Below are positions 21,706 to 54,611 of a stretch of 64,000 nt of DNA, piece after piece. Under the pieces are notes generated by a model. That model searched no databases and was not told the origin of the DNA. It saw only the letters and a list, made by a program, of their open reading frames with translations. The stretch is from Eretmocerus hayati (lineage: Eukaryota; Arthropoda; Insecta; Hymenoptera; Aphelinidae), in contig CM056743.1 of assembly GCA_029851415.1 (NCBI GenBank), positions 79,440,186-79,504,185 of the forward strand, in the 5' to 3' direction. Both the position numbers and the translations under genes were made by a program. How positions within the stretch are numbered: position 1 is the first letter of the stretch; each line of letters opens with the position of its first letter.

Positions 21706-22087
21706 TTGTATATGAACTGCCGATTGAGGTGCATCTGGAGTTGGGAAGTGATATAAACAAGAGTTCCAGGAGTTTCATTGGCGATTGTGAGAGATTCTGC
21801 GGAGACGGGTTGACCAGGGCTCTTGCAAGTTTTCACTCTCCTTTGAGAGTCCTTCGAGGTGAGAAACGTAGCGAAATTAGTTTGGTAAAGAATTCCGAAC
21901 AGAGACCAGTTCACCCTTCTCAACACTGAGTAGTCTATTCAACTAAGAATGCGGCCACATGAGCTCTTTTGCGAGCTCGCTCGGAACGGTATGGCGGATG
22001 TTTTGATTTAAATTGTGAGCAGTGAATACAATTTGCGAGATTAGTACAGTGCGAATTCTCTTGAAATTTACTTTTCTACATGGAAAA

Positions 22088-23057: not shown

Positions 23058-25358
23058 TAGTACATTAAGCAACATGGGGGGAAGGAAGATTCCCGCACGA
23101 GTGTCCGGAAAGAGTGCGAGAAAGTAATAATCTCGCACGATTCCACTTTCACGCACGGTTATTATGTTGTTCTCGCTTTGCGAAAACAACATAATAACCG
23201 TAAACTCGCTTTGCGAGAACAACATAATACCCGTGCGAGAAAGTCGAAAGAGTGCGAAAAAGTTACTTCCTCGCGCGGTTCCGGACACGAGTGCGGGAAC
23301 TTTTCGCCCGCGTTGCTTATACTATTTTATGCAACCTTGGTGGGAAACTGTGCCTCCACGACTTTTGAAACGATTGGCGGCCAGGACTTGAATGAAATGA
23401 TAACAATTATTATCCTATACTGAGTTTATTCAATTGAAATAAGTATCCTTTAGACTAATAAGTATTCTAAAAATCAAATCACAAAAAGGTATATATTGCC
23501 GAGTACTTTGATCTTATACAAATCAATGGCACTCTTCTAAGGAGGTCTACTGACCTCCAAAATGAATTCAATTATTTTGTTGTAGTGAGAGATGGATTTT
23601 TGTTATAAGTTTTTTTTCAACTGGAACAATGTTGTCACCATTCCAAATAATGCGTCAGAGCCGCTTGTTTGACAGACTGTTCAAGGAAGTCGGCAGTAGG
23701 GACCAGGCGACCGGGGCGCGGAGCGGGGTCCAGGGTAGGAAGCCCCCGCCGGGGGGTTCGGGGGTCGGAGCCCCCCGACTGAAATAAAATTCTGAAAAAT
23801 GTATCAAAAAAAACCTCTTGCTCATATCGCGTATCACCTCGTTGCTCAAAAATATCGCCAAATTTCAAAAGACTCAATTTTGATAATTCATCCAACTATG
23901 TATAATGATGATCAATCATCTAAATACATTTGAGAAGGTGGTTTTTAAATGAATAAATATATATATTCCTATCCAGTCAGAGTATTTTTCAAGTAAAGAT
24001 AAGAATATAGTTTATATAAAACGATGAGTTATCGAAGGGTTGGAATCCGCCTACTAACAGATTGACATGCAAGGTTGACTCATTGAATTTTTTTCCAAGT
24101 TTTCAATTCCCTATGAGAATTTCGATGAATTCATTTTCACACAGATTTCATTTTATGCAACGCTGTGCGTAAAATTGTGCGAAAAGTCAAATTTCTATGT
24201 AAGGTACCCGTGCCGAAAGAAATGCAGAAAGTCATTATCGCACGACTAAGTGTGCGAGGAAGTATCTTCCTCACTATGTCTGACAAAACATAGTGAGAGA
24301 ATGAAATCTGTGCGAAAATGGATTCATCAAAATTCTCATAGGGAATTGAAAACTTGGAAAAAAACTCAATGAGTCATCCTTGCATCTCAATCTGTTTCTG
24401 GTAGGCAGATTCCAACACTTCGATTAGTCATCTTTTTATATGAATTATATTTTCATCTTTACTTAAAGAATACTTTCACTGTATAGCGATATATATTCAT
24501 TATTTCCAAATTCACCTTTTCAAATGTATTTAGATGATTGATCTTCATTTTACGTAGTTGGATGAATTATCAAAATTGAATCTTTTGAAATTCGGCGATA
24601 TTTTTGAGCAACGAGGTAATACGCGATATGAGCAAGAGGTTTTTTTGACACATTTCTCAGAATTTTATTTCAGTCGGGGGGCTCCGACCAGCGACTGCCG
24701 CCCCTGGACCCCGCTCCGCGCCCCGGTCACCCGTCCCTGACGCCGACCTCCGCGAAGGGTTTGTCGAACAAGAGGCTCTGACGTATAATTTGAAATAGTA
24801 ACAACATTGTTCCAGTTTACAAAAAACTTATATCGAAAGCCCATCTCGCACTACATAAAAATAATTGAATTCATTTTGGAGGTCAGTTGAAATCCATAGA
24901 AATGTGCCATTGATTTGTATATCAGATCAAGGTACTCGACAATGAGTACTTTTTTGTGATTGAATTTTTAGAACACTTATTGGTCTAAAGAATACTTATT
25001 TCAATTGAATAAAATCAGTATAAGATGATGATTGTCATCATTTCATTCAAGTCCTGACCGTCAATTGTTTTAAAAGTCGCGGAGGCACAGTTTTCCATAC
25101 AGGTTGCATAAAATAGTATAAAATAGTATAAGCAACGCGGGCGAAAAGTTCCCGCACTCGTGTCCGGAACCGCGCGAGAAAGTAACTTTCTCGCACTCTT
25201 TCGACTTTCTCACACGGGTATTATGTTGTTCTCGCAAAGCGAGAACAACATAATAACCGCGCGAGAAAGTGGAATCGTGCGAGAAAATTACTTCCTCGCA
25301 CTCTTTCCGGACACTCGTGCGGGAATCTTCCTTTTCGCCCATGTTGCTTAATGTACTA
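23058..25358. repeat. 2.3-kb giant palindrome
   Basis: TAGTACATTAAGC at 23058 is matched by GCTTAATGTACTA ending at 25358. The two arms of about 1.1 kb are reverse complementary almost to the centre, where a spacer of about 150 bp (24150-24300) carries a GTGCGA-rich unit. The arms contain shorter hairpins (TATTATGTTGTTCTCGC units) and a strongly GC-rich patch (23700-23790 with partner 24680-24740). Frames inside are mirror images and not genes. No target duplication was recognised. Confidence 0.85.
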
Positions 25359-25496
25359 CTAGCGTTATTGCCTTACTCGCTACCGCTCGTTCGGCTTGTA
25401 AATGTTCTCGATAAGTTATAAGCCCCTGAAATGCTTTTATAGTTTGATAATGATGATTATGAAATAACAGTTGAGTTTGTATCCAAAGTATAAAAC
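25359..25496. other. Harbinger or insertion interior, no gene
   Basis: Nothing recognised. Confidence 0.4.
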
Positions 25497-26290
25497 AGTA
25501 TATTATGATACAAACCGCAAACGATAGTTTGCGCACTTCAAGTGACTTTTCCAGGCCCGAGCCGTGGGCAAAAGTCAAGATAGTTACGAAAGACCGGGAA
25601 ACCATTGCGTTCAGATATCATATTATATTTTTTGATTTTCTGTGAGTATATGAAAAGCGACAAACCGTGTGCAAATGATTTATTTGTCCACAGACAATCA
25701 AAATGTTATAATTGGATACGAGTGTAAGTATAATAATTTTTTCATCGTCTGTGCGGAAAAGAACCGTTTTTTTGATTTTCTTCCCCACGCCGACGATGAA
25801 AAAGTAGTATTCGACACTCGGGCGGGGTGGTTTCCGCTTCCGAGCGATGATTCCAACCCTCGCCAAGACTCGGGCCGGAAAAACATCGCTCGGGCCGCGG
25901 AAACCAACATCCCCGCCCTTGTATCGAAATCTACTATTTGAGGTTTGATCGATGCTTTTCTGTGAGAGTTGGAAATAATGTTCGAACGAAAGTTGAATAT
26001 TGTTTTTTCTTTTCGTCGTTAGCGTGGGAGGGAAAATCAAATTTTCCGTATGAAGAGAGCTTTTTTTTTGCACAAACACTCAAATGGTATATTATGATAT
26101 AAAGACGCGAATGATAATTGTTGCACTTCAAGTGACTTTTTTAGGCCCGAGTCGCAGGCGAGGGTCTAAATAGCAAGATCCATTGCGCCCGAATATTATA
26201 TCATGTTTTTCGATCTCCTTTGAGCAAATGGAAAGCGAAATACTGTGTGCTAATGACTCATTTGCGCACAGACGATAAAAAAAAAGTTTG
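25497..26290. repeat. Two tandem copies of a 200-bp unit, inverted partner at 41.5 kb
   Basis: Units at about 25497-25690 and 26083-26285 share TATTATGATA, AGTGACTTTT, AGGCCCGAG and GCACAGACGAT-type landmarks. A third copy lies inverted at about 41475-41672. Together they bracket the Helitron gene cluster. Confidence 0.65.
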
Positions 26291-27455
26291 TCATGGAGTT
26301 CATAAATAAATAAAGAAGTAATTGAGATTAACTGTGCTGAATTTCTTGAACAATTTACTTGGACATATGAATGTCTCGAATCATTTGGAGCTTATTCACA
26401 ATGATAGTCACAATGTGATGTGTGACACAAAACGTACACATGTCAGATGACTCATATGAATAGTGCAATTCATTTTATAAAAATTTTACATAATCGCATA
26501 GAGATGATCTTCCAAAATATTGCTGGAAAATGTTACAAATTCCTCCGAATTTTATCAGACAAATTTCTAGAATTTTCTCAACATTAGATTTGAGTAAAAG
26601 ATCATTCAAAGTTTTGAAATGATTCAAATTCTATTGAGAAATTCTAGAATTTGAAATGAACGGAGAACTTTGAAAATAATTCAGAAGTTTTCTATAGTTT
26701 TGAAAACTTTTAGCTCGGTTGAAGAAAAAAATCAATTATTGAAAAAATTGAACATTTTTTATTATATACCAAAAACGAAAAATCTTTGAACAAAATATTC
26801 TTATTATTCATTTTCAAACTTTTTTCATAATTCTTACAATTGTGGAAGAACAATTGAGACTAGTAAAAATTTGACAATGAGTTATCTTGCAGGTGTAACT
26901 CGAACGATTTTTCACTCCACGAAACATTGTATTGATTACAATACAAGAATGAGTACAAAATATTTCAAAATTTGAAAAGGAGTCTCAATGAATACTTTCA
27001 TACATATTTTCATTGAGTTATCGAAATATGTTGAATTCGAACTCAAAGTCTCAAACTGAAAATTTCACATGATATTATACAATGAATCTTATGCAATTTG
27101 TACATTAAAATTACATAAAATGTTAAACTCCAACGAATTTAAATTACGACGTAATGGAGAAGTAATTTTTTAGTGGATCTCAATAACTATAGAACTTCAA
27201 ATATCACTCTAATGGTCCATCTGGCAATTTTACGTTCAAATTATAAATGATTTCAAGAGGTTTACAATTTCAAAAAATGAATCAACCTCATATGTACAGA
27301 CATTTCAGTAGCAACTTCTTAACAATTAATCAGTAGTATTCATTTGAAAAAAATGTCAATTACATGTGCATAGAGCGAGTTCATGATTTTGAGAAAGAAA
27401 TAGAAATATTTCTCGAAAAATATAAATTGTCATTTGGAAATTCATTAAATTGCAG
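26291..27455. other. AT-rich flank, no gene recognised
   Basis: About 75-80% AT with no coding frame. It is downstream of the RPA1-like gene. Confidence 0.5.
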
Positions 27456-29137
27456 TCATGTTTCTTTATCTTTCATAGTATCAACTATAGTTGTCAACCT
27501 GTAATGATGAAGTCAAATATTACCAGATATATTCACATTTGGTATTCAAATTCAATCAAAAATTGGTAATTTTCTTGTTACCTTTCAATTTCTGATGGAG
27601 CTAAATCTGTAATCATGCAAGAATTTGCATTGAAAAACAATTTTTTTTCTCCTTTATAGGAATTTATCTTGACCTTAGTGAATAAGATTGTTTTTCCAAT
27701 ACCAACAGACGAAATCCCTTTTGAAGCTATTGTGTTCCAAAACACTATAGTTATCTAATAACAAAAACAATTCAATGAATCTTTTGAAATTGAATAAAAT
27801 GATAAAATGATCATACCTTATTGTCCGCTCGATCAACAGTTTCTACATTTCTGAACGAAAGAGAAGTTCCGTCTTTTTTCGTGGTGTTTTCAATTTCTCC
27901 AATCGAATGGATTTTAGCTATATAATCTAGAAAACATACATAACAGACTTAATAATCGTGAATCTTACAACATTTACAAGGTACGCACCGACTAACAAAT
28001 CTGCAGGTTTTTTGAGAATTTCAATATAAGGTACCAAATTATATTGATTTTGTAACTGTGAAAGTGCCTCATTTTCCATTTGGAGAACCTCTGAATCTTG
28101 ATCGATGACCAGATCATAACATTTCACTTTAGCATTTGGTGACGACAAAGTTAAATAAACTTTATTGATCTTGTAAATCTTGCCAACCTATTAAAAAGGA
28201 TTATAATATATTTTTCTGTTACTCCGATAGATTTTTTGGATTAACTTCTAGTCTCTAATAGCAATTTTGGAAATTCCATTCCAAATGAATGAACTGTTTG
28301 TATTCAAATTGATTTACTTCCATCTAGATGGTACTTATTCAATGAAATTATTTAGTGGAATATAATTGAATTTCAACTATCCAAACTTAGTAAACTGAGA
28401 TTACATTATAAGGAATATGTCATGAAAAATAATAGGTATTCTATAAAGAACTAATAAAATACATAAAAGAAAGTATTTTGACCTTTGAAATGACATTACG
28501 AGAACTCAATATGGTAGTTAAGATTAACGCAGGAAGTGATATTATAGTTATGTTGTAAAATTCAAATACCATGTGATACATACCTGAATCTGATGGTAAA
28601 AGAGCTCACAATCATCATTGAAGACTTTGATTCTGATTTTACTGCTGAAATCCAGTATCTCAAAATAGAAGATGCTACCCTTGTTATAATATTGTGATTC
28701 AATAGAACTTTTGAACATCACTTTCCCAGTAATACTGTAACTGAAATAAGAAGAACATTGAGAATTCTAGTTCAAATTTCAATATTACATCACAGTCTAA
28801 ATGTAATTAAATACATAGATGAATTCAATGCGAAAAATGAATCTAATTGCCTTTTTGAACATATTCCTTTAACAAAATAATATGAGACAATAATAAAACG
28901 AATCCTTTATTCAATTAATCCAGCAAGGACTTACCTTTTGATGATAGTGGTTAGTGATCCAATTGTAATTGGGATTTCCATTATCAAGTCATTATCTTCT
29001 AGGGTTGCGGCAAGTACTTTTTCAGGATCGACACCCAAATTTTCAATTTGTTCTGATTGAGTATCTACAGACTTTGAATGTTTTGGATCAGGTTCATCCG
29101 GATTATGACCATCATGAGTTCTTTTCAAATTCTTCAT
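27456..29137 (-). CDS. RPA1-like single-stranded-DNA-binding protein, six coding exons
   Basis: Coding exons on the minus strand are 29137-28935, 28740-28584, 28187-27989, 27926-27817, 27754-27582 and 27498-27456. All junctions are GT-AG and in phase, giving 294 residues with no stop. A charged leader (about residues 1-55) precedes two OB folds. The first, like RPA70 DBD-A, has ITGKVMFKSS, GSIFYFEILDFS and IRIKVFNDDCELF. The second, like DBD-B, has YIAKIHSIGE, DGTSLSFRNVETVD, ITIVFWNTIAS and KLFFNANSCMITD. It lacks the N-terminal DBD-F and the zinc-binding DBD-C of full RPA70 (about 600 aa), so it is a short two-OB form. RPA genes are known cargo of some Helitrons, where they could protect ssDNA during rolling-circle replication. 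A 5' noncoding exon probably lies near 29474-29530. Confidence 0.85.
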
Positions 29138-30015
29138 GATGAACCGATTACACACTTTTGTGATCTTATTGATACCTAATAAACAAAAAGATTAACATGT
29201 TATTCCAGACTTGGAATCAAAAAGGTTTTCAAACACTGTTTTTTTCCTAAGATTCATAGTTGGTTTGAATCAATTACTCCTGTTTACAATCTTAAACTAA
29301 TTCTAAAATCCATTTTGAGGTTAACCACAGGAAATTTTTCATCAGTCTTGAAAGGGTTTAAATCGAAGTAAGGAGTCCAATAATAGTTTTTCTAGGCAAC
29401 TAGGAATGCAAGGATTGAATTTTTTTTGAAAATAAGTCAAATCTCAAAGAAAAAGCTATCATACTTTAGTTACCTGGGTATTCAAGCTGTTGCTCCAAAT
29501 TGTGATTCTGTTACAATGGCGTATAATATGGCTTTTGTGAGTAGACTGTGTAGACTACACATAGCGATTAACTAATTCAACGAATAGAATTTCTGAGTAT
29601 TGGGACTTAAAGGATTTTTCAATGTCATTAGTGAAACAAACTACCTATTCACTCACTGAACCTATCTCACGAACCCACACAAATACAGCGCTGCACAAGT
29701 CTGCACGAGTGACAACGCGAGTATGCGCAGCTATGAGCTCACTCACGCACACGAGTCAAGATTATAATAGGTAATTTCAGTAAACATTTAAAGCTTCATT
29801 CAAATTCGCGATGATTCTCTTGTACGCTTATTATGATTCGTTGAGCTTGTAATCACTTGTAACACAACTCATCACACATTGCTCATGTGTAACAATTCCT
29901 CATTAACAAATGTAAATGAATTAAAGTTTGACAGATTTCAAATCTTGATGAACTTTGTGTGACAGACTCAATATTATCTTGTTGAACCTATAAAGATTTC
30001 ACAAGATTGAAGAAA
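29138..30015. promoter_or_regulatory. Divergent intergenic region between the RPA1-like and 122-aa genes
   Basis: Holds the acceptor at 29176 and a probable 5' exon of the RPA1-like gene ending at 29474 (CCCAG then GTAACT). AAGCTGTTGCTCCAAATT (29484-29501) in that exon recurs with one change at 32175-32192, in the leader of the next minus-strand gene. No clear TATA box was assigned. Confidence 0.45.
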
Positions 30016-30508
30016 ATGGAATCCAATGAAGCAAAAAGAAAATTAGCCTTTATTAATCTTCATGAAATTCCAATGCCTAAAAAGAGTAAATTCTCAGTGG
30101 TATCTGACAATTTACTCAAACAATCTAAGACATCTTCCCAAACCACAGATTTGATTCCAACGCTAGAATATTATTGGAAAGTGTCAGATGAATCCAGAAA
30201 AAGTAAGTACCAGTAATTTCTCCCGACTGAACAGATGAAAATTTCATACCTTTTGAAGACTTTAGGGCCCGAGAGAAAGTATCAACAGTTTCAAGATACT
30301 CATTCTTAAAGCAGATTGAAGAATTTGTTACAAACTCTCAATCTGAGAGGTATGTTCATGTGATTCTTATTGGATTATATTGTGTCGTTATATTCTGTCT
30401 TCTTACAAAATTTACAGTGTACCAAGGAAAAAAAATTATGAAATTCCTCTTGTGGGTCTTGAAAAGAGTCATAGAATCAATGCGGAGGAGTCATTCGAGA
30501 TGGATTAA
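30016..30508 (+). CDS. Small basic protein, three exons, function unknown
   Basis: The coding exons 30016-30202, 30259-30349 and 30418-30508 join in phase through GT-AG introns of 56 and 68 bp to give 122 residues with a normal stop. The introns are short, as in insects. The N-terminal half has two basic clusters (NEAKRKLAF and MPKKSKF) that could be nuclear localisation signals. The C-terminal half includes SRYSFLKQIEEFV and VPRKKNYE. No domain recognised. A polyadenylation signal AATAAA lies at 30613-30618. It sits between the RPA1-like and SIM-protein genes and appears intact, so it is probably part of the same element. Confidence 0.65.
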
Positions 30509-31293
30509 GGATGATTGTGGATAATTGTAATGTTTCGAATGACATGGATTACATATCATTATCAAGAAAAACTAATATACAATGATTCATTATTTCAAAA
30601 TTGCATAGATTGAATAAAAAGTCTTGTTATTTTCATGGATTAGAATCAATAAATGAAAGAATCTTTGAACTACCCTGTATTCAAGATACGACTTTCTACA
30701 TATACCTTACATCATTCTGTCTTTCAATAGATGAATACAATCTATGAGTTACATTTTCTTAGAATGAAGTTATACATGAACTAAAAAGTTATCCAAAAAG
30801 TGGTATTCTTCATTATCAAATGACAGCTATGATTCTCTCCAATATATTACCATATACTTTTTGAGGCAGATTTTCAAACAAATTTGAGGATTTAAACCAT
30901 GAATTGTGAGAAAAATCATTCGACGGATAAACTTCAATTATCTTTTGAAAGTTCTTCTTAACTAATATAAACAGTTCTACTTATACTTCTACAATAATTT
31001 GTTGGAGGACATTGTCAAATACATTTCAAAAATTCAATTCATGAAGAACTTGAAGTATTGTAATACTAAGTAATAGTATGATGAAAATATACAGCTTCAA
31101 CTTTACAAAATTGTCATTTTCACATTTTAAATATTACCTCAGTAATATCTCTGAAACTTTCAATTTCTTTGTTGAGAAATTCAGTAGAGATTGAGGAGTG
31201 CCCAAAAAAATGATTTTTGAAGTGTTTCATCAATTCAATCTAAAAATTAATAATAGGGTATAGTAAAGATCTCAGAATTTGATATCACAGTTA
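30509..31293. other. Intergenic; one possible extra exon
   Basis: On the minus strand about 31225-31140 is an open stretch flanked by TTTTTAG and GTAATA (contains FKNHFFGHSSIS). It could be an exon, but splicing from the 31.3-31.7 kb gene at the only good donor gives a stop, so I leave it uncalled. Confidence 0.4.
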
Positions 31294-31737
31294 TCAATAA
31301 AGCAATCTGGAAATGTTACCTTTTGGACTTTTGTGATGATGACAGTTTGACTGATCCATGATACTTCTTTTCGAGTGTTCATCAACTGATACTTGTGAAG
31401 ATTCTACATTAACTTCATTGGTAATAGGAATAATCTCATCATCTTTTCCAATAATATTAACATGTGGCTCGAGGATGTGTGTTTCATCATCTGAGAATGA
31501 ACTGAATGAAAATTCTCTAGATGTCACAGAGGCAGTAGTGGAGATGTCGTCATCACTGATCTCAATTATTTCTGATTGTAACATAGCTTGATAATGTGTA
31601 GCATAATACTTTGTCTGAGAACATTCAAATTCATCTGCACCTTCATAATAAGAACTATCGTCAGAGTCTGTATAGGTCCATTTGGCTTTTTTATTAGACA
31701 AACTGTTGCTAATGGCATCAAATTTTCTCTTGGACAT
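31294..31737 (-). CDS. Acidic nuclear-type protein with a SUMO-interacting motif
   Basis: Start ATG 31737 follows a splice acceptor (CTTACAG), giving 147 residues if unspliced; a donor GTAACA near 31321 might shorten or change the tail. The N-terminus is basic (SKRKFD, NKKAK), consistent with nuclear import. Residues 57-64, IIEISDDD, form a textbook SUMO-interacting motif: a hydrophobic core followed by acids and a serine. The rest is serine/aspartate rich (TDSDDSSYY, SSFSDDETH). No catalytic domain recognised. Probable noncoding leader exons lie near 32040-32100 and 32130-32210. Its neighbour, the Rep/helicase, has an array of SIMs, so both may address SUMO. Confidence 0.6.
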   Translation of the reverse strand: MSKRKFDAISNSLSNKKAKWTYTDSDDSSYYEGADEFECSQTKYYATHYQAMLQSEIIEISDDDISTTASVTSREFSFSSFSDDETHILEPHVNIIGKDDEIIPITNEVNVESSQVSVDEHSKRSIMDQSNCHHHKSPKGNISRLLY

Positions 31738-32885
31738 GTTTACCTGTAAGTTGAATGATTCAAAATGCATTATTTCAAATCATCAGAAGTTCTACAATGT
31801 ATTCTTCTTTTATTTCTAAAACCTTCTACAACTTCTTAAAAAAATCTTAGTAATTGAGATTCCATCTCAAGATTATCTTGAATATTGTCAACAGACTTTA
31901 AAATTTCATTAAATATCAAAATATCAGATGTAATTGATGATGAGGAGATGTACGTGCAATCAGTTAGAGAGTTCTATGAATGAGTTCTGAAATTACATGT
32001 AAAAATCATTTAAAAAGATACTCACGGTATATTGCTGCAAGTTCAGAGGTACCTTCGATACTCTGACGATAAATATTCCACAATGTTAAAGAATTTTCTC
32101 CTACTGTATTCACAATATATACTAACCAAGGCTCGTAGAAAGTTGCTAGTATCAGAACAAGTAGTCAAGTGAATAAGCTGTTGTTCCAAATTTTTGGAGA
32201 TAGAGACGCTGAACTTTGCAAAGGACTGTCCCCACTACTTCCAAATTCCACTACACATTCCGACAGCCACATTCCGATACCACGTGGTTGAGCTTTTACA
32301 CGCTCTGTACATACTCTACGCGCGTACGTTTTCGAAGTGCGTTATAGTCGTATACTGGCAATGATGCATACAAGGGTGCTTTTTTAATTGCACCAAGAAA
32401 GTCCTTCAAGAATTTTCAAAACTTTTCAATAGTGCTCAAACAGTTTTTAACACAACTATAAGTGTGTTATCTGGAAAGAACCCAAAAATTCAAATGTGAT
32501 ATGTGAAGTCCACAGCACATTCCATGTAAGTATCAATAATGGTCATTCAACAATATTAGAATCTTTTTTCCAAGTGATAGTTGAGGTATACTGGTAGATA
32601 TTTCTTTTGAAGTATCTGACATCGTTTCTACAGGTTTTTTAACATAAAAGTCAAAAAATTGAAATTATGATACCGACTGTTCACGGGTTTCCGAAATTTT
32701 TCGGAAACGTGAGATTCCGTTTGAATGATCACCAAAGTTTTGGATTTCTGTGATCATATCGATCAAACAGACCCTGTTGGATAATTTCATTCATGTATAT
32801 TTCACAGCGTGCCTCAATAACCATGTTATTAAGTCACAAAAAATTTAGAAGAAATTCAATGAAAAATTTGTAGTATCAGTGGAAG
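31738..32885. other. 5' leader region of the SIM protein; otherwise no gene
   Basis: Contains donor-like sites at about 32035 (CGTGAGTAT on minus) and about 32127 (GTTAGT on minus), and the leader motif AAGCTGTTGTTCCAAATT. Confidence 0.4.
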
Positions 32886-33162
32886 ATGAGTTTACAATCA
32901 AATATTGAAATTCTTAAATTGTTCACAGTTAAGTTGGCGCAATTATGCAGACCTGAGTTAACAATTGTACCTCGAGATGATAAAAAGGTATGTTTCTAAG
33001 TTGTTCTCTACTAGAAATTCCAATTTATTTTCATATATCTTGCAAAACGCACTTGGAATTAGTGAAATCTCATGAGTGATCATTTACTACAACATGAGTT
33101 TAATTGGAAGGAATTTTACTGTATTTTAGACTATAAGCATTCGCATTATTGGATTGCCTTAG
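32886..33162 (+). CDS. Possible 44-codon small gene or leader ORF of the Rep/helicase
   Basis: ATG 32886 opens 34 codons to a donor AAAAAG|GTATGT (32987/32988). An acceptor TATTTTAG at 33129 continues in phase for ten codons to TAG. A stop lies just upstream in frame. Splicing instead to the acceptor at 33912, before the Rep/helicase ATG, would be out of frame, so this may be an upstream ORF on the same transcript. No family recognised. Confidence 0.3.
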
Positions 33163-33923
33163 AGCAGAGCATTTGGAACATTGCAACTCTCGAAATTCTT
33201 CTTCTCATGCAATGAATGAAGTCGTATCCACCAATGAAGCACTAATGTTGTACTTTGGTACATGGCGCAGTTCATAGCACCAGCGCTAAAATTTGCGTGG
33301 GCTTAATTCATTAGTCATTATAAACACATTGATTACGCTCTTTGAAAATTTCGATTAAGGTCACTGACTTCCGATTTTTTATTTCGAATATGATTAATGA
33401 ATTGAGACATTTAATTGTGAGCGCTTCATTTGTGGGCACATTGTAAGAGCGAAGAAAACGAAAGTTCAGAACATTTTGACTTGCATAATTGAATGAACAA
33501 ATAGTTTTTTTATGCGTTTCAAGCATTTCTAAAAAGTTGACTATATTGTCTCAATGAAAATTCGACTTTATACTTACCTTTATGATCGTTTTATAAAACT
33601 CATTTCAAAAACTTCTGAAATCTTGCGAATTCTCTTTCATACGATTTTATTAGTTTGACTTTTAAAATGATGAAATTATTGTTTTTGCCAGCGAATAATT
33701 ACTGAATTTTGGATGAAGATTGAAAAAAATAGATAAGATTGCGAATCAACAGCATTGAATCTATTAACCGATATTACTGGTTTGGCAAGAAAAACAAAGT
33801 GTTGAATAACTGTAACAAGTAAAAAAGGTATTACAAAAATATTATATGTAACTCTATAAGTTTTCAATTGAACGAAAATTTTTTTACAATACCTTCAAAA
33901 TTCTTCTTTCAGGTTTCAGCAAT
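33163..33923. other. Probable intron or leader before the Rep/helicase
   Basis: Ends in a strong acceptor TTCTTCTTTCAG (33901-33912), eleven bases before the ATG, so the Rep/helicase mRNA probably has a spliced leader exon. Confidence 0.5.
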
Positions 33924-36900
33924 ATGGATTATCCTGAATCAGAATTCTACAAAATACTCAATCTTGGAGGGCATCTTAAAGAGGCGCAATTGACTGATGA
34001 ACATATGAATGCATTACGAGAACTTTTACCAGAAATTCACATGCAAAATCCTTTATATACGCAATTTTTAGACAACATACTCCCTGCGACTGGTGAGTTT
34101 ATACAGATATTATTCTCAGGTCCGTCTTTTGCGGGTCATTGGATCTGTGTACAGTACAAAGATTCAGAACTATTCGTCTACGATAGTTCTCATGGTAAAT
34201 TGAAACCTGAACATTTGTTATATTTAAATAGAATGTTGCCCAATGTAGAACATCTAATTGTTAATTATGAAAATGTACAATTACAATCGTTATCTTTCCA
34301 ATGCGGTTGTTTTGCGATCGGAAATGCAATTGCAGCTTCATTACAAATATGTCCATGCAATGTTACTTATCTTGAAAATCGAATGAGAAATCATCTGATC
34401 GAAATGTTTTTAACGAAGAGAATTAGCATGTTACCTGTCCAATGCATTAATGATAGTTTTTTCGAAAATTCGAATCATAGGACGTTATTAGCCACTGAAA
34501 CGATTCATTTGAATGCATTTAAAAATTCATACAGATCAATTTCTAGACATGGATTAATAAGTCATTCTGATATAATTGATTTGACAGGTTTCAATAAATC
34601 TGATCATAGAAGTCTCAAAGATAGCATCTCAGATAGCAATGAATTGATCGATTTAACAAGACCCAAGAAATTTGAAAAACCGAACTCTAAGATTAGTTTT
34701 TTAAAGGAAACTAAATCAATTGATCAGATATCTCTGAATAATTTCAAAAGTCGAAATTTTGAAAATGAGAATTCGAAGAATTATACGACAATTGATTTGA
34801 CAAATCTCGATGAATTCACAAGTGGAAGTCATCGGGATGATCAGTTTTATCAAGACGAAATAGTTGACCTGACTAATATCGATGAATGTGAAAATGAAAT
34901 TTTCAGAGGGTTCTCCCGAAATAGTAATGAAACAGTTGATTTGACGAATTTTGATGAATCTCATTTTAGGAATCCTATAGATGACATTTCAAGTAAAAAC
35001 AAAATAGTCGATTTAACAAGTTCCAGTATAAGCGAAAATCCAAATCTCCAAAATAGTATTATAAGTGAAATCAAAACAGTTAATTTGTTAAGTTCTGACG
35101 AATTCAAGAGTAATAATCTTGATCATGATTTTACAAATTCTATTGAGCTAAACTCAATGCCCGTGCCAAGAAGAAGTATAAGAAATATTATAGTAGAACA
35201 ACCTATGGAAATTTCTGAAACTGCATATTCTGAAGAACAATGTTACATTCCAACAATCGAACATGGTAAAATTCATAAACCACAGCAAAAACAGTATGAA
35301 AACAGTTTTTTGTGTAATTCAAATGCCACTGTACCTGATTCAACAGAAAATCCACGTATTTTACGAAGGCTGCAACAAAATGCTGCGAAAGAAGTCTCTA
35401 TCCGTGAATTGTATGACATCTCAAAACGTACTGCGGAAAATATTCGGAAATCTTCAAAACGAATCCTTCAAAACCAAGCAGCAAAGGATATAAAAATTGC
35501 TACAAAAAATCTCCAAAATTTGAATGCCACTGATGATAGAGAAACTCAAATCGATGCAAAATTGAAATTAAATTTGACACAACAGATTTATATGCGTAGT
35601 CGAATAGATCAAGATAAGATTATTGATAAGAAAAAAATTTTGAATCATCAAGTCGGTTTAATTAGCAATTCAAAATTCAACGAAGATCTTATCATGCCTA
35701 ATTATATAGGCACTAAAACTGTGCGTTGCGAATTTTGTAATGCTCTTCATTTCGCATTGAATCGTCCACAAGACCGTAAATTTAATAAATGTTGTCAGAA
35801 AGGTGAATTAGTATTGAGACCAGATCCTGAATACCCTGTTGAATTAGAAAATTTGATGACTGGTAAATCAATTTTTTCAAATTACTTTCAAAAAAATGTA
35901 CGTGAATTGAATAATGCTTTTTCATTGACCAGCTTTGGTGCAACTTTCGAACCTCTCAGAACAGCTGGTCCACCAGTTTTACGAATCAGTGGACTCACTT
36001 ATCATAACTCGTTTGCCCTACATGCTAATGATTCTGAGGAACCTCGATACGCTCAGTTATATATTTTGGATACTGAGTCAGCGAGAGATCTCCGAAAAAA
36101 TTTCATTGGAGATACTCTTTTTCCTTCTTCATTACATGACGAATTAAATAGTATATTAACGAAATTGAATCCTTATATCAAAGCGTACAAAACGATGTAT
36201 GAAGTAGAACAAGAAGAATTGAAATCAGCATTAAGAGGAAATCGTAATCCACATCAAATTCAGATGAGCGTCGTTCGAGATAACAACCCGACTCAAAGTA
36301 TTGATGTAAAAGATGAAGTCTTTATGATACAAGTGGGAGATCAATTAGAAGTTTCAGAAAACAGAGATTTCTGTGTATATTCAAGATCCGATAAACCGCA
36401 CCGGATACCTTCTCTCAGTCAACATTCTGATCCAATGGGCTATATTTTGATGTTTCCTCATGGACAGTGGGGCTGGCGGCCAAATTTAACTAGTCTCAAA
36501 AAAACTAAAAAAATAAGAGAAACTATTTCAGCATGTAACTATTATGGATATTATTTATCTGTTCGAAAAGAATTTGAGCCTCGTCTTAACATGTGTAAAT
36601 TGACGCAACAATTCTTTTTAGATGTCTGGTCTAAAATTCTAGCAGGTCGATTATACTGGGTGCGTAAACACCAATTGCAACTCAGAGCAGCGTTTTATCA
36701 CGGGCTCATGGATTCTTTGAAGGACCAAGTTTTACGAACTGGTAAAAAAGTTGGTAAAATCGTAATTTTACCATCTTCGTTCGAAGGTAGTCCTCGTAAT
36801 TTACACCAAAATTACATGGATACCATGACTGTTCTAGGTGAATTAGGATTACCGAATTTGTTTATCACTATGACATGTAATCCTAAATGGCCAGAAATTC

Positions 36901-39869
36901 AATGTTGTTTGAAACCATGGGAAACAAGTTTCGATAGACCTGATGTGGTATCTGAAGTTTTTGGTATAAAACTTGCTCAATTTGAGTTAGAAATTGTCTT
37001 AAAACAATGTCTTGGTCACACCGAAGGTTCAGTTTTTGTTATAGAATTTCAAAAAAGAGGTTTACCACATGTACATTCACTCTTATATTTGAATGAATAT
37101 GATAAAATTCGTGATATCGAACATGTAAATAGAATTATTTGTGCTGAAATTCCCGATGAAACTTTGCATCCACGTACATTCAAATTAGCTAAAGCACATA
37201 TGGTCCATGGACCTTGCGGAAAATTGAATACTAATTCACCTTGTATGGATAAAGAGAAAGATGAATGTACTAAGGGTTACCCTAAATCTTTTTGTGAAGA
37301 AACACAATTTGTCTCTGACAAATACCCAGTATATCGTCGCAGAAATGATGGCCGAAAAATCATTTTCAATTCCGGTGTAGAAGTAGACAATCGATGGATA
37401 GTCCCGTTTAATGAGTATTTGTTATTATTATTTGAAACACATATTAACATAGAAATTTGTTCCACTCTCAAATTGATAAAATATCTGTATAAGTATTTAT
37501 ACAAAGGCCCCGATACAGCGACTGTTAAAGTGACTGTCAAAGAAGGTCAAACTATAATCTCCCAATCAGATTGTGAAACTGGATCAAAGAATGATTCAGA
37601 AGAATTCATTATTTACGACGAAGTAACACAATTTCTGAACACCAATTTCACTTGTCCTCCAGAAGCAGCTCACAGGATCCAAAAATTACCACTTCATAAG
37701 CTATCACATACTGTCATTAGATTAGCTGTTCATTTAGAGCATCAAAATTTGATATATTTTGAAGAAGGGGAGGAAGAAAAAGCTCTTGAAAAACATCACG
37801 AAACACATTTAACAGCATGGTTTAAATTAAATCAAACCGATCCTGAAGCTCGCCAATATTTATATAGTGAAATTTGTCAACATTATGTTTATCCGGAAAC
37901 TCTTAAAAAATGGCAACCACGAAAAAAATTTAACAAACCTGTGATAGGTCGAATCTATTTTGTCTCTCCAAAAGATCAAGAAAGATTTTATTTAAGAATG
38001 TTATTATTGAATGTAAGAGGTGCAACTTCATTTGAAGATATACGAACAGTGAATGGAGTTCTTTTTACAACTTATAAAGAAGCTGCTTTAGAAAGAGGTT
38101 TGATAAAAACTGACGATGAATGGGACAAATGTTTACACGAGGCTTCGACTTTTCAATTCCCGTTGAAATTTTGCGAACTTTTTGCACACATATTAATATC
38201 TCATAAGCCACATGATGCAGCTATTTTGTATGAAAAATATAAGATTCATTTTCTTGAACGAAATGTAGAATCTGATGTCGCTGAACAAAAAGCCTTGAGA
38301 ATCATTCAAAAAATCATTGAAAGTCACGATTACACTTTAGAATACTTTGACTTACCATCTATTGATACATCATTTGATGGAAACGTTGATTGTTCACTCC
38401 CTTTATTCGCTCATCATACTGATTACTCTGTCGAAGCACTGATGGCCCCTCAATTACAAATATTTGAGATAATTTGTAATTCTTTGAATAACAAGACAAA
38501 TAAACATCTCATCTCAATCGATGGACCAGGTGGAAGTGGCAAGAGTTACTTATTAAATACATTAATTAAATATTGTAAAGATAACATTGTGCCTGTTTTT
38601 GCTGTAGCGTGGATGGGTATTGCATCAAATTTATTGATCGATGGTAAAACTGCTTCATCTGGATTGAGAATACCTCTAGAACTGAACGAAGGAACGACAT
38701 GTAATATCATGGTTGATTCTCCTTATGCTGAGTTTTTAAGAACCATACGTATTCTTATCTGGGACGAAATTTCAATGGTCAACAAATATGCATTCGATGC
38801 TGTTAGTAAATTATTCTCAGATCTACATTCCAATCAACGTCCATTCGGTGGTATTACAGTAGTTGTAGCGGGCGATTTTAGACAAATTTTGCCAATAGTT
38901 CATCATGGGACTCGCACACAAATTGTAAATGCATGTGTTAAACGCAGTAAATTCTGGTCAAGTTTCACAAAAGTTACATTAAAAGATAATATTCGCGTAA
39001 CAACGAATGATGGAGAATTCAAAAAATGGCTCCTTGATATTGGTGAAAATCGTAATCTTACAGATTTCGAGATCAATAATAATTGCGTACAAATTCCGAA
39101 CCAATTTGTCGTAGAAGATGACCTCATAACTTCAGTTTATGGAAATGAAATAGATCCACTCAACGACACTTCAAGTTCAAACATCATTCTTTCACCGCGA
39201 AATGATGATGTATTAAGAATCAATGAAAAAATAGTGGAAAAACTAGATGGTGAATATCGAGAATATATCGGTGTTGATTATTTAGAAGATGGAGAGTCAG
39301 ATGAATTTGGAAGTTCGATTTCACTTGATTACATGAACTCTCTTACTCCCAGTGGTTTACCGCCTTTCAGGTTAAAATTAAAAGTAGGAACTATTATCAT
39401 GTTACAAAGAAATTTAAATTCACATACCGGCTTGTGCAATGGTACTCGTATGATAGTTTTAGGTTTAAAAACTCACGTGATCCTTGCTAGAATCATCAAT
39501 GGAAAAGACAAAGGTGATATAGTTTTTCTCCCAAGGATCAACATTAAAGCCTCAAAGAATGAAATTCTATTTTCTATGGTACGGCGACAGTTTCCGATTA
39601 GAATCGGTTTTGCAATAACGATAAATAAGTCACAAGGACAATCTTTCGACCGTGTAGGTATATATTTGCCAGCCCCTGTGTTCGCACATGGACAGTTATA
39701 TGTTGCTCTCTCAAGAGTTACTTCTAAAGACAATTTAAAGATCTTGATGAGAAATGGTGCTCGAATAAACAACAACCAAATAGTTTCGGATCGGTCATCA
39801 AAAATGATCGTTAAAAACACTCAATTATATACCACCAACGTTGTATACCCTGAGATCTTCTCAGATTAA
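33924..39869 (+). CDS. Helitron Rep/helicase with N-terminal Ulp1-like protease domain and SIM array
   Basis: Uninterrupted 1981-codon frame. (1) Residues 1-175 look like a C48/Ulp1-type cysteine protease: H72 in GHWICVQY, D87 in FVYDSS, and C127 in FQCGCFAIGNAIA with Q126 before it. (2) Residues 217-390 hold I/V-D-L-T motifs on an exact 24-residue grid. (3) Residues 602-624 have C602, C605, H609 and C623/C624, the zinc-binding start of Helitron proteins. (4) The HUH nuclease has H1049/H1051 in GLPHVHSLLYL and tyrosines 1187 and 1191 in IKYLYKYLYKG. (5) The Pif1-type SF1B helicase has Walker A GPGGSGKS (1534-1541), Walker B IWDE (1612-1615), GDFRQILP, INKSQGQSF and YVALSR. Together 3-5 are the Helitron rolling-circle transposase. 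A poly(A) signal lies 300 bp beyond the stop. All catalytic residues are present. Peptidase-type N-termini are not part of the core Helitron plan; the protease call is from motif order only. Confidence 0.92.
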   Translation: MDYPESEFYKILNLGGHLKEAQLTDEHMNALRELLPEIHMQNPLYTQFLDNILPATGEFIQILFSGPSFAGHWICVQYKDSELFVYDSSHGKLKPEHLLYLNRMLPNVEHLIVNYENVQLQSLSFQCGCFAIGNAIAASLQICPCNVTYLENRMRNHLIEMFLTKRISMLPVQCINDSFFENSNHRTLLATETIHLNAFKNSYRSISRHGLISHSDIIDLTGFNKSDHRSLKDSISDSNELIDLTRPKKFEKPNSKISFLKETKSIDQISLNNFKSRNFENENSKNYTTIDLTNLDEFTSGSHRDDQFYQDEIVDLTNIDECENEIFRGFSRNSNETVDLTNFDESHFRNPIDDISSKNKIVDLTSSSISENPNLQNSIISEIKTVNLLSSDEFKSNNLDHDFTNSIELNSMPVPRRSIRNIIVEQPMEISETAYSEEQCYIPTIEHGKIHKPQQKQYENSFLCNSNATVPDSTENPRILRRLQQNAAKEVSIRELYDISKRTAENIRKSSKRILQNQAAKDIKIATKNLQNLNATDDRETQIDAKLKLNLTQQIYMRSRIDQDKIIDKKKILNHQVGLISNSKFNEDLIMPNYIGTKTVRCEFCNALHFALNRPQDRKFNKCCQKGELVLRPDPEYPVELENLMTGKSIFSNYFQKNVRELNNAFSLTSFGATFEPLRTAGPPVLRISGLTYHNSFALHANDSEEPRYAQLYILDTESARDLRKNFIGDTLFPSSLHDELNSILTKLNPYIKAYKTMYEVEQEELKSALRGNRNPHQIQMSVVRDNNPTQSIDVKDEVFMIQVGDQLEVSENRDFCVYSRSDKPHRIPSLSQHSDPMGYILMFPHGQWGWRPNLTSLKKTKKIRETISACNYYGYYLSVRKEFEPRLNMCKLTQQFFLDVWSKILAGRLYWVRKHQLQLRAAFYHGLMDSLKDQVLRTGKKVGKIVILPSSFEGSPRNLHQNYMDTMTVLGELGLPNLFITMTCNPKWPEIQCCLKPWETSFDRPDVVSEVFGIKLAQFELEIVLKQCLGHTEGSVFVIEFQKRGLPHVHSLLYLNEYDKIRDIEHVNRIICAEIPDETLHPRTFKLAKAHMVHGPCGKLNTNSPCMDKEKDECTKGYPKSFCEETQFVSDKYPVYRRRNDGRKIIFNSGVEVDNRWIVPFNEYLLLLFETHINIEICSTLKLIKYLYKYLYKGPDTATVKVTVKEGQTIISQSDCETGSKNDSEEFIIYDEVTQFLNTNFTCPPEAAHRIQKLPLHKLSHTVIRLAVHLEHQNLIYFEEGEEEKALEKHHETHLTAWFKLNQTDPEARQYLYSEICQHYVYPETLKKWQPRKKFNKPVIGRIYFVSPKDQERFYLRMLLLNVRGATSFEDIRTVNGVLFTTYKEAALERGLIKTDDEWDKCLHEASTFQFPLKFCELFAHILISHKPHDAAILYEKYKIHFLERNVESDVAEQKALRIIQKIIESHDYTLEYFDLPSIDTSFDGNVDCSLPLFAHHTDYSVEALMAPQLQIFEIICNSLNNKTNKHLISIDGPGGSGKSYLLNTLIKYCKDNIVPVFAVAWMGIASNLLIDGKTASSGLRIPLELNEGTTCNIMVDSPYAEFLRTIRILIWDEISMVNKYAFDAVSKLFSDLHSNQRPFGGITVVVAGDFRQILPIVHHGTRTQIVNACVKRSKFWSSFTKVTLKDNIRVTTNDGEFKKWLLDIGENRNLTDFEINNNCVQIPNQFVVEDDLITSVYGNEIDPLNDTSSSNIILSPRNDDVLRINEKIVEKLDGEYREYIGVDYLEDGESDEFGSSISLDYMNSLTPSGLPPFRLKLKVGTIIMLQRNLNSHTGLCNGTRMIVLGLKTHVILARIINGKDKGDIVFLPRINIKASKNEILFSMVRRQFPIRIGFAITINKSQGQSFDRVGIYLPAPVFAHGQLYVALSRVTSKDNLKILMRNGARINNNQIVSDRSSKMIVKNTQLYTTNVVYPEIFSD
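34572..35150 (+). repeat. 72-bp coding tandem repeat (SUMO-interacting-motif array)
   Basis: Within the Rep/helicase, core motifs start at residues 217 (IIDLT), 241 (LIDLT), 289 (TIDLT), 313 (IVDLT), 337 (TVDLT), 361 (IVDLT) and 385 (TVNLL). A degenerate unit lies at 265. Spacing is exactly 24 residues throughout. Acidic or serine residues often follow (NLDE, NIDE, NFDE, SSDE), as in RNF4- and PIAS-type SIMs. Confidence 0.9.
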
Positions 39870-40496
39870 ATTTCAAAGTTGAATTACGAATTCATTATTG
39901 ACACCCTACAAATGGAATTGAATCTTTTTTTAAATTATATAGAACTATTACTTAAATGTTATATCAAGGTCTAACGATCATTCAAATTTTGTCATTAGAA
40001 TGCACTAAATGGTAATTTTCAATAACTTACAATTCTTAACAGGAGACTTCTATTTTGTAAAATTCATTCACAAATCAATTGTAGTGGAATTTCTGTGTGT
40101 TCAATATATGTCATCATAAGGTATATATACTGTGCTATACTTAATGTACCTGTAAAACCTTTTGTAAATAAAAAGTGAGTTAATATATCAATCGATTTGT
40201 ACATAAGAATATATCTTTGTCAGAAAGATTTGAAAATTAAAAATCCACCATTATTTATCGTGTGAATCTCATCCCGCTTATAATCTGCATCTAGATGAAA
40301 AAATAATCACAAGAATATTCCTCTTTTCACCATTGAATAACATTTATACCTTTATTACCCATCTTGTTTGACTCAATCAATCCACTGAATTAGAAATAGT
40401 TATTTACATCTAAAGATGCAATTATATCGAAACAGACAACTTCTACAATCCAATAGACAGTGGAAACCTAAATAACTTTCACTCAAACTCTAGAAA
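39870..40496. other. 3' UTR and AT-rich flank of the Rep/helicase
   Basis: Polyadenylation signal AATAAA at 40167-40172. No other gene seen. Confidence 0.6.
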
Positions 40497-41150
40497 TTTC
40501 CAATGAAATGTTTGCTGAAATTTTAGTGAATTTTTCGGTGAAATTTTAGTGAATTTTCCACTGAAATTTTCGGAAATTTTCACTGATTTTTTAGTGAAAT
40601 TGTCACTGATTAGTGAAATTTTCACTGATTTTTTAGTGAAATTTTCACTGATTTTTAAGGGAAATTTTCACTGATTTTTTAGTGAAATTTTCACTGATTT
40701 TTTAGTGAAATTTTCACTGATTTTTTAGTGAATTTTCACTGATTTTTTAGTGAATTTTCACTGATTTTTCAGTGAAATTTTCACTGATTTTTTAGTGAAA
40801 TTTTCACTGATTTTTCAGTGAAATTTTCACTAATTTTTTAGTGAAATTTTCACTGATTTTTTAGTGAAATTTTCACTGATTTTTCAGTGAAATTTTCACT
40901 GATTTTTTAGTGAATTTTCACTGATTTTTCAGTGAAATTTTCACTAATTTTTTAGTGAAATTTTCACTGATTTTTTAGTGAAATTTTCACTGATTTTTTA
41001 GTGAAATTTTCACTGATTTTTCAGTGAAATTTTCACTGATTTTTTAGTGAAATTTTCACTGATTTTTCAGTGAAATTTTCACTGATTTTTTAGTGAAATT
41101 TTAGTGAAATTTTAGTGGATTTTTAGTGGAATTTTAGTGAAATTCCATCA
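40497..41150. repeat. 22-23-bp palindromic minisatellite
   Basis: About 28 units of TTTTCACTGATTTTTTAGTGA, in which CACTGA and TTAGTG form a short self-complementary pair. It degrades at both edges into AGTGAAATTTTAGTG variants. It lies 3' of the Rep/helicase, where Helitron-like elements often carry tandem repeats. Confidence 0.9.
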
Positions 41151-41474
41151 AAACTTTATCGATTTTCACTGAAATTCAGTGAAACGCATCACTCACACTT
41201 TGACGATTTCCACTGAAATCACTCATGTTCAAGTCCATCCATTCACCCACCAACCAACCCATCCGACCACTAACCCCCACTCACCCACCGACCCACCCAC
41301 CCATCCACCCACCCACGACCCAACCATGACCCATACGGCCACCCATCGCCCTTCCCCCCCTCCCGATAGGCAACCTGGGGGGCGAGATGCCGACGGACAA
41401 AATTTGGCTGGGCTTTTAATTATTTTAATTCTCACTATGTTTTGTCAAACATAGTGAGAAAGTTACTTTTTGAT
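41151..41474. other. CCCACCCAT-rich tract and terminal-type hairpin
   Basis: 41235-41365 is a low-complexity CCCACCCA tract. CTCACTATGTTT and AAACATAGTGAG form a 12-bp stem (41432-41459), a motif also found at the centre of the giant palindrome (24273-24300). A candidate region for the 3' end of the Helitron, though no CTRR end was pinned down. Confidence 0.5.
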
Positions 41475-41790
41475 CGTCTGTGCGCAAATGAGTCATTTGC
41501 ACACTGTTTTTCGCTTTTCATTTGCTCACAGAAGATCAAAAAACATAGGATAATACTCGGGCGCAATGGTTTTCGCTTCCTCGTGGCTATTCAGACCATC
41601 GCCTGCGGCTCGGGCCTCGGAGTCACTCGGAGTGCGAGAACCATCGTTTGCGCCCTTGTATCATAATATACTATTCTCGCACACTTAGCCGTGCGATAAT
41701 GAATTTCTGCATTTCTTTCGGCACGGGTACCTTGCATAGAAAGTTGACTTTTCGCACAGTTTTACGCACAGCGTTGCATAAAATGAAGAA
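41475..41790. repeat. Inverted partner of the 25.5-26.3 kb repeats
   Basis: Reads as the reverse complement of the 26.1-26.3 kb unit, then continues into a GTGCGA-rich segment (41690-41785) that is the inverse of the palindrome centre at 24150-24260. Confidence 0.7.
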
Positions 41791-54555: not shown

Positions 54556-54611
54556 ATGGTAACGTGAATTTGTAACGTGCCGGTAGCAAGTGTGCTTGGT
54601 GACTGGTGAGA

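What the first reader, a model, noticed from the sequence alone, without database searches (positions are those of the whole stretch)
33924..35150. Helitron transposase fused to a Ulp1-like protease and an eight-unit SIM array
The N-terminus has the H...D...Q-C order of SUMO proteases. The next 170 residues carry seven I/V-D-L-T-type cores and one degenerate unit on an exact 24-residue grid. I/V-D-L-T followed by acids or serines is the high-affinity SIM type of RNF4 and PIAS proteins, and tandem SIMs bind poly-SUMO chains. A transposase that can both bind and cleave SUMO would be a new way for a rolling-circle element to handle host repression or DNA-repair foci. The frame is intact, so it is likely under selection. 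Motifs and period are seen; SUMO binding and cleavage are inferred.
Basis: partly seen in the sequence, partly recalled or inferred. Interest (0 to 1): 0.88.

Follow-up and report, generated by a model that had tools for sequence, protein, structure and literature searches.

The report
Helitron transposase with SUMO-binding front end
A complete rolling-circle transposase carries an extra front end that looks like a SUMO or ubiquitin protease followed by eight repeated motifs of the SUMO-binding type, suggesting that the jumping gene manipulates its host's SUMO tags.

Summary
One uninterrupted 1,981-codon frame (33924-39869, +) encodes a full Helitron RepHel protein. Its first 450 residues have no BLASTP similarity to any of the 120 RepHel relatives examined. 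Residues 17-173 carry H72-W, D87, Q121-x5-C127-G in Ulp1/SENP order. Residues 208-399 are eight DNA-level repeats of exactly 24 residues: six exact [IV]DLT cores, one VNLL, one degenerate IDQI. The periodicity is far beyond chance, and the core is kept while its synonymous sites and the flanks have diverged, so the core itself appears selected. VDLT is the core of the two RNF4 SIMs that suffice for binding di-SUMO.

The protease call is probable, not proven. The domain alone hits nothing in Pfam, and nothing significant in PDB; models are poor and fold searches inconclusive. Deubiquitinases on Helitrons are published, so I rate it a new variant, apparently the first SIM array and first Ulp1-like domain on a Helitron. 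No second copy could be read; SUMO activity is inferred.

The parts
33924..39869 (+). Single 1,981-codon ORF: Helitron RepHel protein with novel N-terminal extension (P0001)
   Evidence: Pfam
33972..34442 (+). Putative Ulp1/C48-like (clan CE) cysteine protease domain, residues 17-173
34137..34139 (+). H72, proposed catalytic His (GHW)
   Evidence: sequence; register in the alignments
34182..34184 (+). D87, proposed catalytic Asp (VYDSS)
   Evidence: sequence; register
34284..34286 (+). Q121, proposed oxyanion-hole Gln (Q-x5-C)
   Evidence: sequence; register (6dg4 fragment)
34302..34304 (+). C127, proposed nucleophile (QCGCF; C129 is the second Cys)
   Evidence: sequence; register (6dg4 fragment)
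34545..35120 (+). Array of eight 72-nt / 24-residue units, residues 208-399
34575..34586 (+). unit 1 core IDLT (218)
34647..34658 (+). unit 2 core IDLT (242)
34719..34730 (+). unit 3 degenerate core IDQI (266)
34791..34802 (+). unit 4 core IDLT (290)
34863..34874 (+). unit 5 core VDLT (314), EIVDLT
34935..34946 (+). unit 6 core VDLT (338)
35007..35018 (+). unit 7 core VDLT (362)
35079..35090 (+). unit 8 core VNLL (386)
36540..37085 (+). Helitron_like_N / HUH Rep domain, residues 873-1054; HxH at 1049-1051
   Evidence: E=8.9e-48
37479..37508 (+). KYLYKYLYKG, Helitron tyrosine motif, residues 1186-1195
   Evidence: regex; role as catalytic Tyr recalled
38442..39047 (+). PIF1 helicase domain, residues 1507-1708, Walker A and B motifs present
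39327..39467 (+). Pif1_2B domain, residues 1802-1848
40167..40172 (+). AATAAA, possible polyadenylation signal, the only one in the 631 nt after the ORF

Best explanation
The element is a Helitron whose RepHel transposase has gained an N-terminal SUMO-handling module: a clan-CE (Ulp1/SENP-like) cysteine protease followed by a multivalent array of about seven SUMO-interacting motifs. Most likely mechanism (inferred): the SIM array docks the transposase on poly-SUMO or multi-SUMO signals, that is on SUMO-dependent silencing chromatin at transposon loci or on SUMO-rich replication/repair sites. The tethered protease then removes SUMO (or ubiquitin/NEDD8) from nearby proteins, possibly including the transposase itself, which relieves repression or stops SUMO-targeted degradation of the transposase. 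The HUH nuclease and Pif1 helicase then carry out rolling-circle transposition. Shown: the intact frame, the Rep/helicase motifs, the 24-residue duplication array and the constraint on its core. Inferred: protease fold, catalysis, SUMO binding, specificity, mobility and biological role.
For: Intact RepHel with HxH, tyrosine, Walker A/B and LSRVTS motifs. Array: identity 0.45-0.49 at multiples of 72 nt against 0.294 elsewhere; over all eight grid units core pN/pS is 0.28 (pS 0.70) against 0.78 in the flanks (pS 0.65), so the core's synonymous sites are as diverged as elsewhere. RNF4 SIM2 and SIM3 are VDLT and are necessary and sufficient for di-SUMO binding; VIDLT is the high-affinity PIAS core (PMC3901395, passages). 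Context: SUMOylation by Su(var)2-10 is important for TE silencing and Panx SUMOylation is needed for its contact with Sov (PMC9406493, passages); three zebrafish Helitron VTD domains are active deubiquitinases (PMC9741609, passages); P0021 has an N-terminal OTU and P0089 a C-terminal USP.
Against: P0003 alone: no Pfam hit at E<=10 and no NCBIfam hit at E<=1, PDB hits only at E>=0.17 and to unrelated proteins, no relative in the protein database and none confirmed in viral or prokaryote contigs. Against real SENP1 the pairwise score is 37: 112 of 1,000 shuffles reach it, another window of the same protein (39) and N-termini of relatives (up to 43) beat it, and the best local alignment is not in the catalytic register. 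hhalign against SENP1+6dg4 puts the catalytic residues in register but two of 40 shuffles score higher; against SENP1 alone it aligns only residues 60-92. The 6dg4 match covers 34 residues around the Cys, and that fragment was picked by a profile that contains P0003. The composite was typed with P0003 in view, so its E-value is not independent; it also has a sub-cut-off match to YopJ acetyltransferases (18.7 against 24.4 bits). AlphaFold models are poor (pLDDT 41.3 and 47.4); Foldseek gave nothing with E<=0.001. The 6-exact-unit pN/pS of 0.08 is biased by choosing exact cores. Four of eight units have T or S, not a hydrophobic residue, just before the core. Only one copy was read.
Confidence: 0.58

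Rival explanations
1. The front-end protease is a deubiquitinase/deneddylase, in line with the OTU, USP and VTD domains on other Helitrons, and protects the transposase from proteasomal degradation; the IDLT array is a separate SUMO-binding localisation module. (Overlaps with the best explanation; the odds given here are not exclusive.)
For: The three zebrafish Helitron VTD domains tested react with ubiquitin (two also with NEDD8) and not with SUMO1, SUMO3 or ISG15 probes (PMC9741609, passages); two relatives carry OTU and USP; SENP8, a NEDD8 protease, is among the hits.
Confidence: 0.25
2. The domain is catalytically dead or serves autoprocessing only: it cleaves the front end from RepHel, and the repeats are a spacer.
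For: It sits in cis on a long multidomain protein; cleavage of the Rep/Helicase protein was one role proposed for Helentron OTU proteases (PMC4067079, passages).
Against: All proposed catalytic residues are present; the [IV]DLT core shows constraint that a spacer would not. I did not search for cleavage sites.
Confidence: 0.1
3. The 24-residue array is a diverged form of the 23-residue STPR repeats that some Helitron transposases carry before the Rep domain, and IDLT is a structural pattern, not a SIM.
For: Five of the 120 listed relatives carry PF21107 (STPR) in the precomputed column; for P0039 it was found again at 26.2 bits, just under the cut-off of 27; others have charged repeats of about that length in the same place (by eye).
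Against: Period 24, not 23; composition rich in S, N, I, D, L, E rather than R/K/E; no STPR match listed for P0001; the conserved columns are D-L-T.
Confidence: 0.1
4. A chance or decaying fusion: a Helitron that captured host coding sequence without function for transposition.
For: Helitrons are known to capture host genes (PMC6431247, passages); no second copy could be read; none of the 120 relatives examined has the module.
Against: One frame open over 1,981 codons at 33.6% G+C; repeats are old (0.43-0.62 nt identity between units, mean 0.51) yet six of eight cores are exact, though that constraint may in part predate a capture.
Confidence: 0.12

Closest known systems
Helitron RepHel transposases of animals (e.g. 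P0004 unnamed, P0005 Orchesella cincta, P0080 Diachasmimorpha longicaudata; 37-41% identity)
   Same: Region from about residue 590 to the end: Rep with HxH, Pif1 helicase
   Different: No similarity to residues 1-450 in any of the 120 examined, no H-D-Q-C pattern, no [IV]DLT array
VTD deubiquitinase-bearing Helentrons (zebrafish DrT1/DrT2; PMC9741609, passages)
   Same: Ubiquitin-system cysteine protease on a Helitron-type transposase
   Different: Cys-Asp-His order and AP endonuclease context; no reaction with SUMO probes; no SIM array mentioned in the passages seen
OTU-bearing Helentrons/Helitrons (PMC4067079, passages; P0021 here)
   Same: Cysteine protease accessory domain, N-terminal in P0021
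   Different: OTU fold; in it the Cys precedes the His (recalled)
Ulp1/C48-bearing transposons: Ginger1 (PMC2836005), oomycete Cryptons (PMC3212892), plant Vandal/KIU MULEs (PMC13317346), passages of each
   Same: Ulp1-type protease on a transposon
   Different: Other transposase classes; no SIM array mentioned in the passages seen
RNF4 and PIAS SIMs (PMC3901395, passages)
   Same: [V/I]DLT core, multivalent in RNF4
   Different: Cellular ligases; RNF4 has four SIMs (IELV, VDLT, VDLT, VVIV), not an exact 24-residue array

Membership tests
Helitron (RepHel) | Helitron_like_N/HUH Rep domain | tested here: met
   PF14214 E=8.9e-48; HxH at 1049
Helitron (RepHel) | PIF1 helicase in the same protein | tested here: met
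   PF05970 E=3.3e-51, PF21530 2.9e-16
Helitron (RepHel) | Element ends: 5' TC, 3' hairpin plus CTRR, A/T insertion | tested here: inconclusive
   Many hairpin-CTRR-T candidates inside the 40.5-41.1 kb array, no unique end; 5' end not fixed
Helentron | C-terminal AP endonuclease | tested here: not met
   No endonuclease hit; only 47 residues follow the LSRVTS helicase motif
Ulp1/C48 (clan CE) protease | Ordered H, D, Q, C with HW and Q-x5-CG | tested here: met
   H72-W, D87, Q121-x5-C127-G; definition of the motif recalled
Ulp1/C48 (clan CE) protease | Match to Pfam Peptidase_C48 or a solved Ulp1/SENP by sequence | tested here: inconclusive
   P0003 alone: none; profile with typed composite: first nine of 13 PDB hits Ulp1/SENP-type; 6dg4 fragment 0 of 1,000 shuffles, SENP1 112 of 1,000 and off register
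Ulp1/C48 (clan CE) protease | Clan CE fold | tested here: inconclusive
Ulp1/C48 (clan CE) protease | Cleaves SUMO or a related modifier | not testable with these tools
   needs activity probes
SIM array (RNF4 type) | Repeated [VI]DLT cores | tested here: met
   six exact, one VNLL, one IDQI
SIM array (RNF4 type) | Constraint on the core beyond the repeat itself | tested here: met
   pN/pS 0.28 core, 0.78 flanks over eight units of one copy
SIM array (RNF4 type) | Non-covalent SUMO binding | not testable with these tools
   needs binding assay
VTD deubiquitinase | Cys-Asp-His order | tested here: not met
   order here is H-D-Q-C
STPR repeats | 23-residue repeats matching PF21107 | tested here: not met
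   period 24; PF21107 not among the 13 families listed for P0001 at E<=10, filters on

The most novel reading that the evidence does not exclude
A transposon-encoded SUMO reader-plus-eraser: a Helitron transposase that homes to poly-SUMO at silenced or repairing chromatin through an eight-unit SIM array and strips SUMO there with a cis Ulp1-like protease, a direct counter-weapon to SUMO-dependent (piRNA/Su(var)2-10-type) transposon silencing.
Probability: 0.3. Interest if true: 0.88.

Novelty: new variant of a known kind. Interest (0 to 1): 0.66.

Why it matters
SUMOylation takes part in transposon silencing in animals, and several transposon classes have separately picked up ubiquitin-family proteases whose role in transposition is unproven. 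A transposase that joins a SUMO-binding array to a probable Ulp1-type protease would tie the two facts together and make the anti-silencing idea testable with one protein: change the cores or C127 and measure SUMO binding, desumoylation and transposition. On print: no paper in the library holds both Helitron and 'SUMO-interacting motif'. The searches Helitron with Ulp1 (11 papers), with cysteine protease and OTU (4), C48 (7), SUMO (30, 15 listed) and deubiquitinase (5) showed none that, in its title, abstract start or the passages I opened, reports an Ulp1-type domain on a Helitron; I opened passages of seven of these papers and none in full.

Tried and rejected

Relatives of the N-terminus: protein database (none), IMG/VR (pattern matches, none confirmed), prokaryote genomes (113 pattern matches, none confirmed), phages (none). 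Full protein in IMG/VR: none. The search with the whole protein found 551 relatives, of which the 120 listed were examined; the other 431 were not seen. The bare Q-x5/6-CG-x-[FY] regex does hit two of the 120 (P0063 at 946, P0085 at 138), in a QNYQDAMAICGKF stretch of the Rep region, not in an N-terminal domain.

In one search the starts and ends for P0001 itself (595, 21 residues) follow from the pieces that I cut as queries and are not used; one search measured the alignable range instead.

Own-genome copies: the genome search could not be reached in eight attempts, so the most useful test, other copies of this family, was not done.

Element ends: no unique 3' or 5' end could be fixed. The inverted repeats around the A+T-rich block were taken for possible termini and rejected: the right-hand arm is a repeat of about 196 nt inserted in another dispersed repeat that has an uninterrupted copy at 24176-24298.

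Rfam: no hit in the window at gathering scores. The ten other ORFs tested have no Pfam hit above a cut-off.

Full report
What is there. The frame 33924-39869 on the + strand is open for 1,981 codons at 33.6% G+C. Pfam places a Helitron_like_N domain at residues 873-1054, a PIF1 helicase at 1507-1708 and the Pif1 2B domain at 1802-1848. The HxH at 1049, the KYLYKYLYKG tyrosine motif at 1186, Walker A at 1534, Walker B at about 1610 and the LSRVTS motif at about 1929 are present. An AATAAA lies at 40167. By its protein this is an intact Helitron transposase, without the AP endonuclease of Helentrons. The 120 best of 551 database relatives share 32-43% identity and come from springtails, arachnids, Daphnia, wasps, ants, nematodes, frogs, geckos, cnidarians, some plants and unnamed metagenomes. 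The host is thus most likely an animal, perhaps an arthropod; this is inference.

The extension. All 120 listed relatives align with P0001 by BLASTP, but no alignment starts before residue 451; the median start is residue 590 and the median end 1979. Residues 1-450 are therefore peculiar to this protein in that set. None of the 120 matches the N-terminal 183 residues (phmmer, filters off, best E 1.2) or holds the H-D-Q-C pattern; none has two or more [IV][DE]LT in its first 700 residues or one [VIL][DE]LT in its first 600. The bare Q-x5/6-CG-x-[FY] string hits two of them inside the Rep region.

The array. Residues 208-399 form eight units on an exact 24-residue grid. Cores: IDLT, IDLT, IDQI, IDLT, VDLT, VDLT, VDLT, VNLL. 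Nucleotide identity at 1 to 6 x 72 nt is 0.45-0.49 over residues 175-425 against 0.294 +/- 0.029 at other offsets, maximum 0.362; unit pairs are 0.43-0.62 identical. So the units descend from tandem duplication, and the units with poor cores belong to it. Over all eight units, chosen by the grid and not by their cores, pN/pS is 0.28 in the four core codons and 0.78 in the flanks (the two codons next to the core left out); pS in the core (0.70) is as high as in the flanks (0.65). In the sliding-window run over the six exact-core units pN is lowest exactly at the core, but that subset was chosen by its cores and its ratio of 0.08 is biased. The plain reading is that old, diverged repeats have been held to [IV]DLT at protein level. 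In RNF4, SIM2 and SIM3 are VDLT and that pair is necessary and sufficient for a chain of two SUMOs; PIAS has a VIDLT core with tight SUMO binding (PMC3901395, passages only). Four of the eight units have T or S instead of a hydrophobic residue just before the core, so affinities may vary.

The domain. Residues 17-173 have H72-W, D87 in YDS, and Q121-x5-C127-G128-x-F, the order and spacing of Ulp1/SENP enzymes (family features recalled; register seen in the alignments). Independent database support is thin: no Pfam or NCBIfam match and no significant PDB match with the domain alone, and no homologue in 5.8 billion clustered proteins by shared words. I recalled a family of C48-type domains of animal transposon-like proteins and typed a composite of it. 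BLASTP gives 51 of 158 positions identical, E=8e-14, from the LTDEHMNA block to the MRNHL...LP block, and the composite passes Pfam's C48 cut-off, with a weaker, sub-cut-off match to YopJ acetyltransferases. This is a lead only, as the composite was typed with P0003 in view. A profile of the two has 13 PDB hits at E<=10; the first nine are Ulp1/SENP/ULP-named, the best at 2.5e-5, the other eight at 0.013-0.11 and five of those SENP1 constructs. With real sequence only: P0003 against the 6dg4 fragment scores 50 over 34 residues around the Cys (shuffles 24 +/- 3.7, 0 of 1,000; 18 other windows of the protein at most 28; N-termini of the 120 relatives at most 39). Against SENP1 it scores 37, reached by 112 of 1,000 shuffles, beaten by another window of the protein (39) and by relatives' N-termini (43), and the alignment is off the catalytic register. 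hhalign against SENP1 plus 6dg4 is in register but two of 40 shuffles score higher, and against SENP1 alone it covers residues 60-92 only. Models of pLDDT 41 and 47 cannot settle the fold. My own estimates: a clan-CE protease 0.8, SUMO binding by the array 0.75, SUMO as the protease's main substrate 0.5.

How it may work. In Drosophila SUMOylation by Su(var)2-10 is important for transposon silencing, and SUMOylated Panx is needed for contact with the heterochromatin factor Sov (PMC9406493, passages). A SIM array would bring the transposase to such places or to SUMO-rich repair and replication sites; a cis protease would edit them. For comparison: three VTD domains of two zebrafish Helitrons react with ubiquitin (two also with NEDD8) but not with SUMO probes (PMC9741609, passages); [quoted passage not shown] Ulp1 and OTU on Ginger1 were proposed to act on DNA repair (PMC2836005, passages). 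Among the relatives here P0021 has an N-terminal OTU and P0089 a C-terminal USP. Helitrons thus gain unrelated proteases of the ubiquitin family repeatedly; here the type is new for a Helitron as far as my searches went, and it comes with a binding array. Ulp1-type proteases are known on Ginger1, on Cryptons (PMC3212892, passages) and on plant MULEs (PMC13317346, passages).

Verdict. Observation confirmed with a small correction of the count; interpretation partly supported. The SIM array is the best-founded new point, the protease a good but unproven call, and the joint mechanism an attractive inference. The missing piece is any second copy: the genome search was unreachable in eight attempts.

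Noticed in passing
26500-41000: A+T-rich block (24-37% G+C in 500-base windows) around the Helitron ORF, with 34-44% just outside; it may be the extent of a large element, but no ends were fixed.
   Followed up: partly
40521-41144: About 27 tandem copies of a 23-bp unit, most with an AGTGAAA/TTTCACT palindrome followed by GAT or AAT, so that hairpin plus CTRR-T, like a Helitron 3' end, is repeated many times; possibly multiplied termini.
   Followed up: partly
31294-31770 (-): 158-aa acidic ORF with basic KRK and KKAK stretches and EIIEISDDD, itself SIM-like by eye, upstream of the Helitron ORF in opposite orientation; ends near a GT that could be a splice donor (by eye); no Pfam hit above cut-off.
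   Followed up: partly
54612-55175 (-): 187-aa ORF ending in AECIDLTSSNFQ, another IDLT followed by serines; neighbouring ORFs of 52909-55995 (-) may be one decayed or spliced element (by eye).
   Followed up: no
41469-41664; 26083-26282; 25494-25706; 24176-24298: A dispersed repeat of about 196 nt inserted at 41469-41664 within a second repeat whose uninterrupted copy lies at 24176-24298.
   Followed up: partly
62633-64000 (-) and 22022-22723 (+): LTR-retrotransposon pol-like ORF (by eye) and an ORF with an HTH_Tnp_4 match below cut-off.
   Followed up: no
49648-51097: Two long GATG/TCCA-type satellite tracts in opposite orientation, with 29-bp repeats outside them at 49467 and 51185 that look like reverse complements (by eye).
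   Followed up: no
P0089, P0021, P0004 (database relatives): RepHel proteins fused to a C-terminal USP (P0089) or an N-terminal OTU (P0021); P0004 has a C-terminal extension of about 376 aa with an OTU-like GDCFYHSI stretch by eye, no Pfam hit there.
   Followed up: partly
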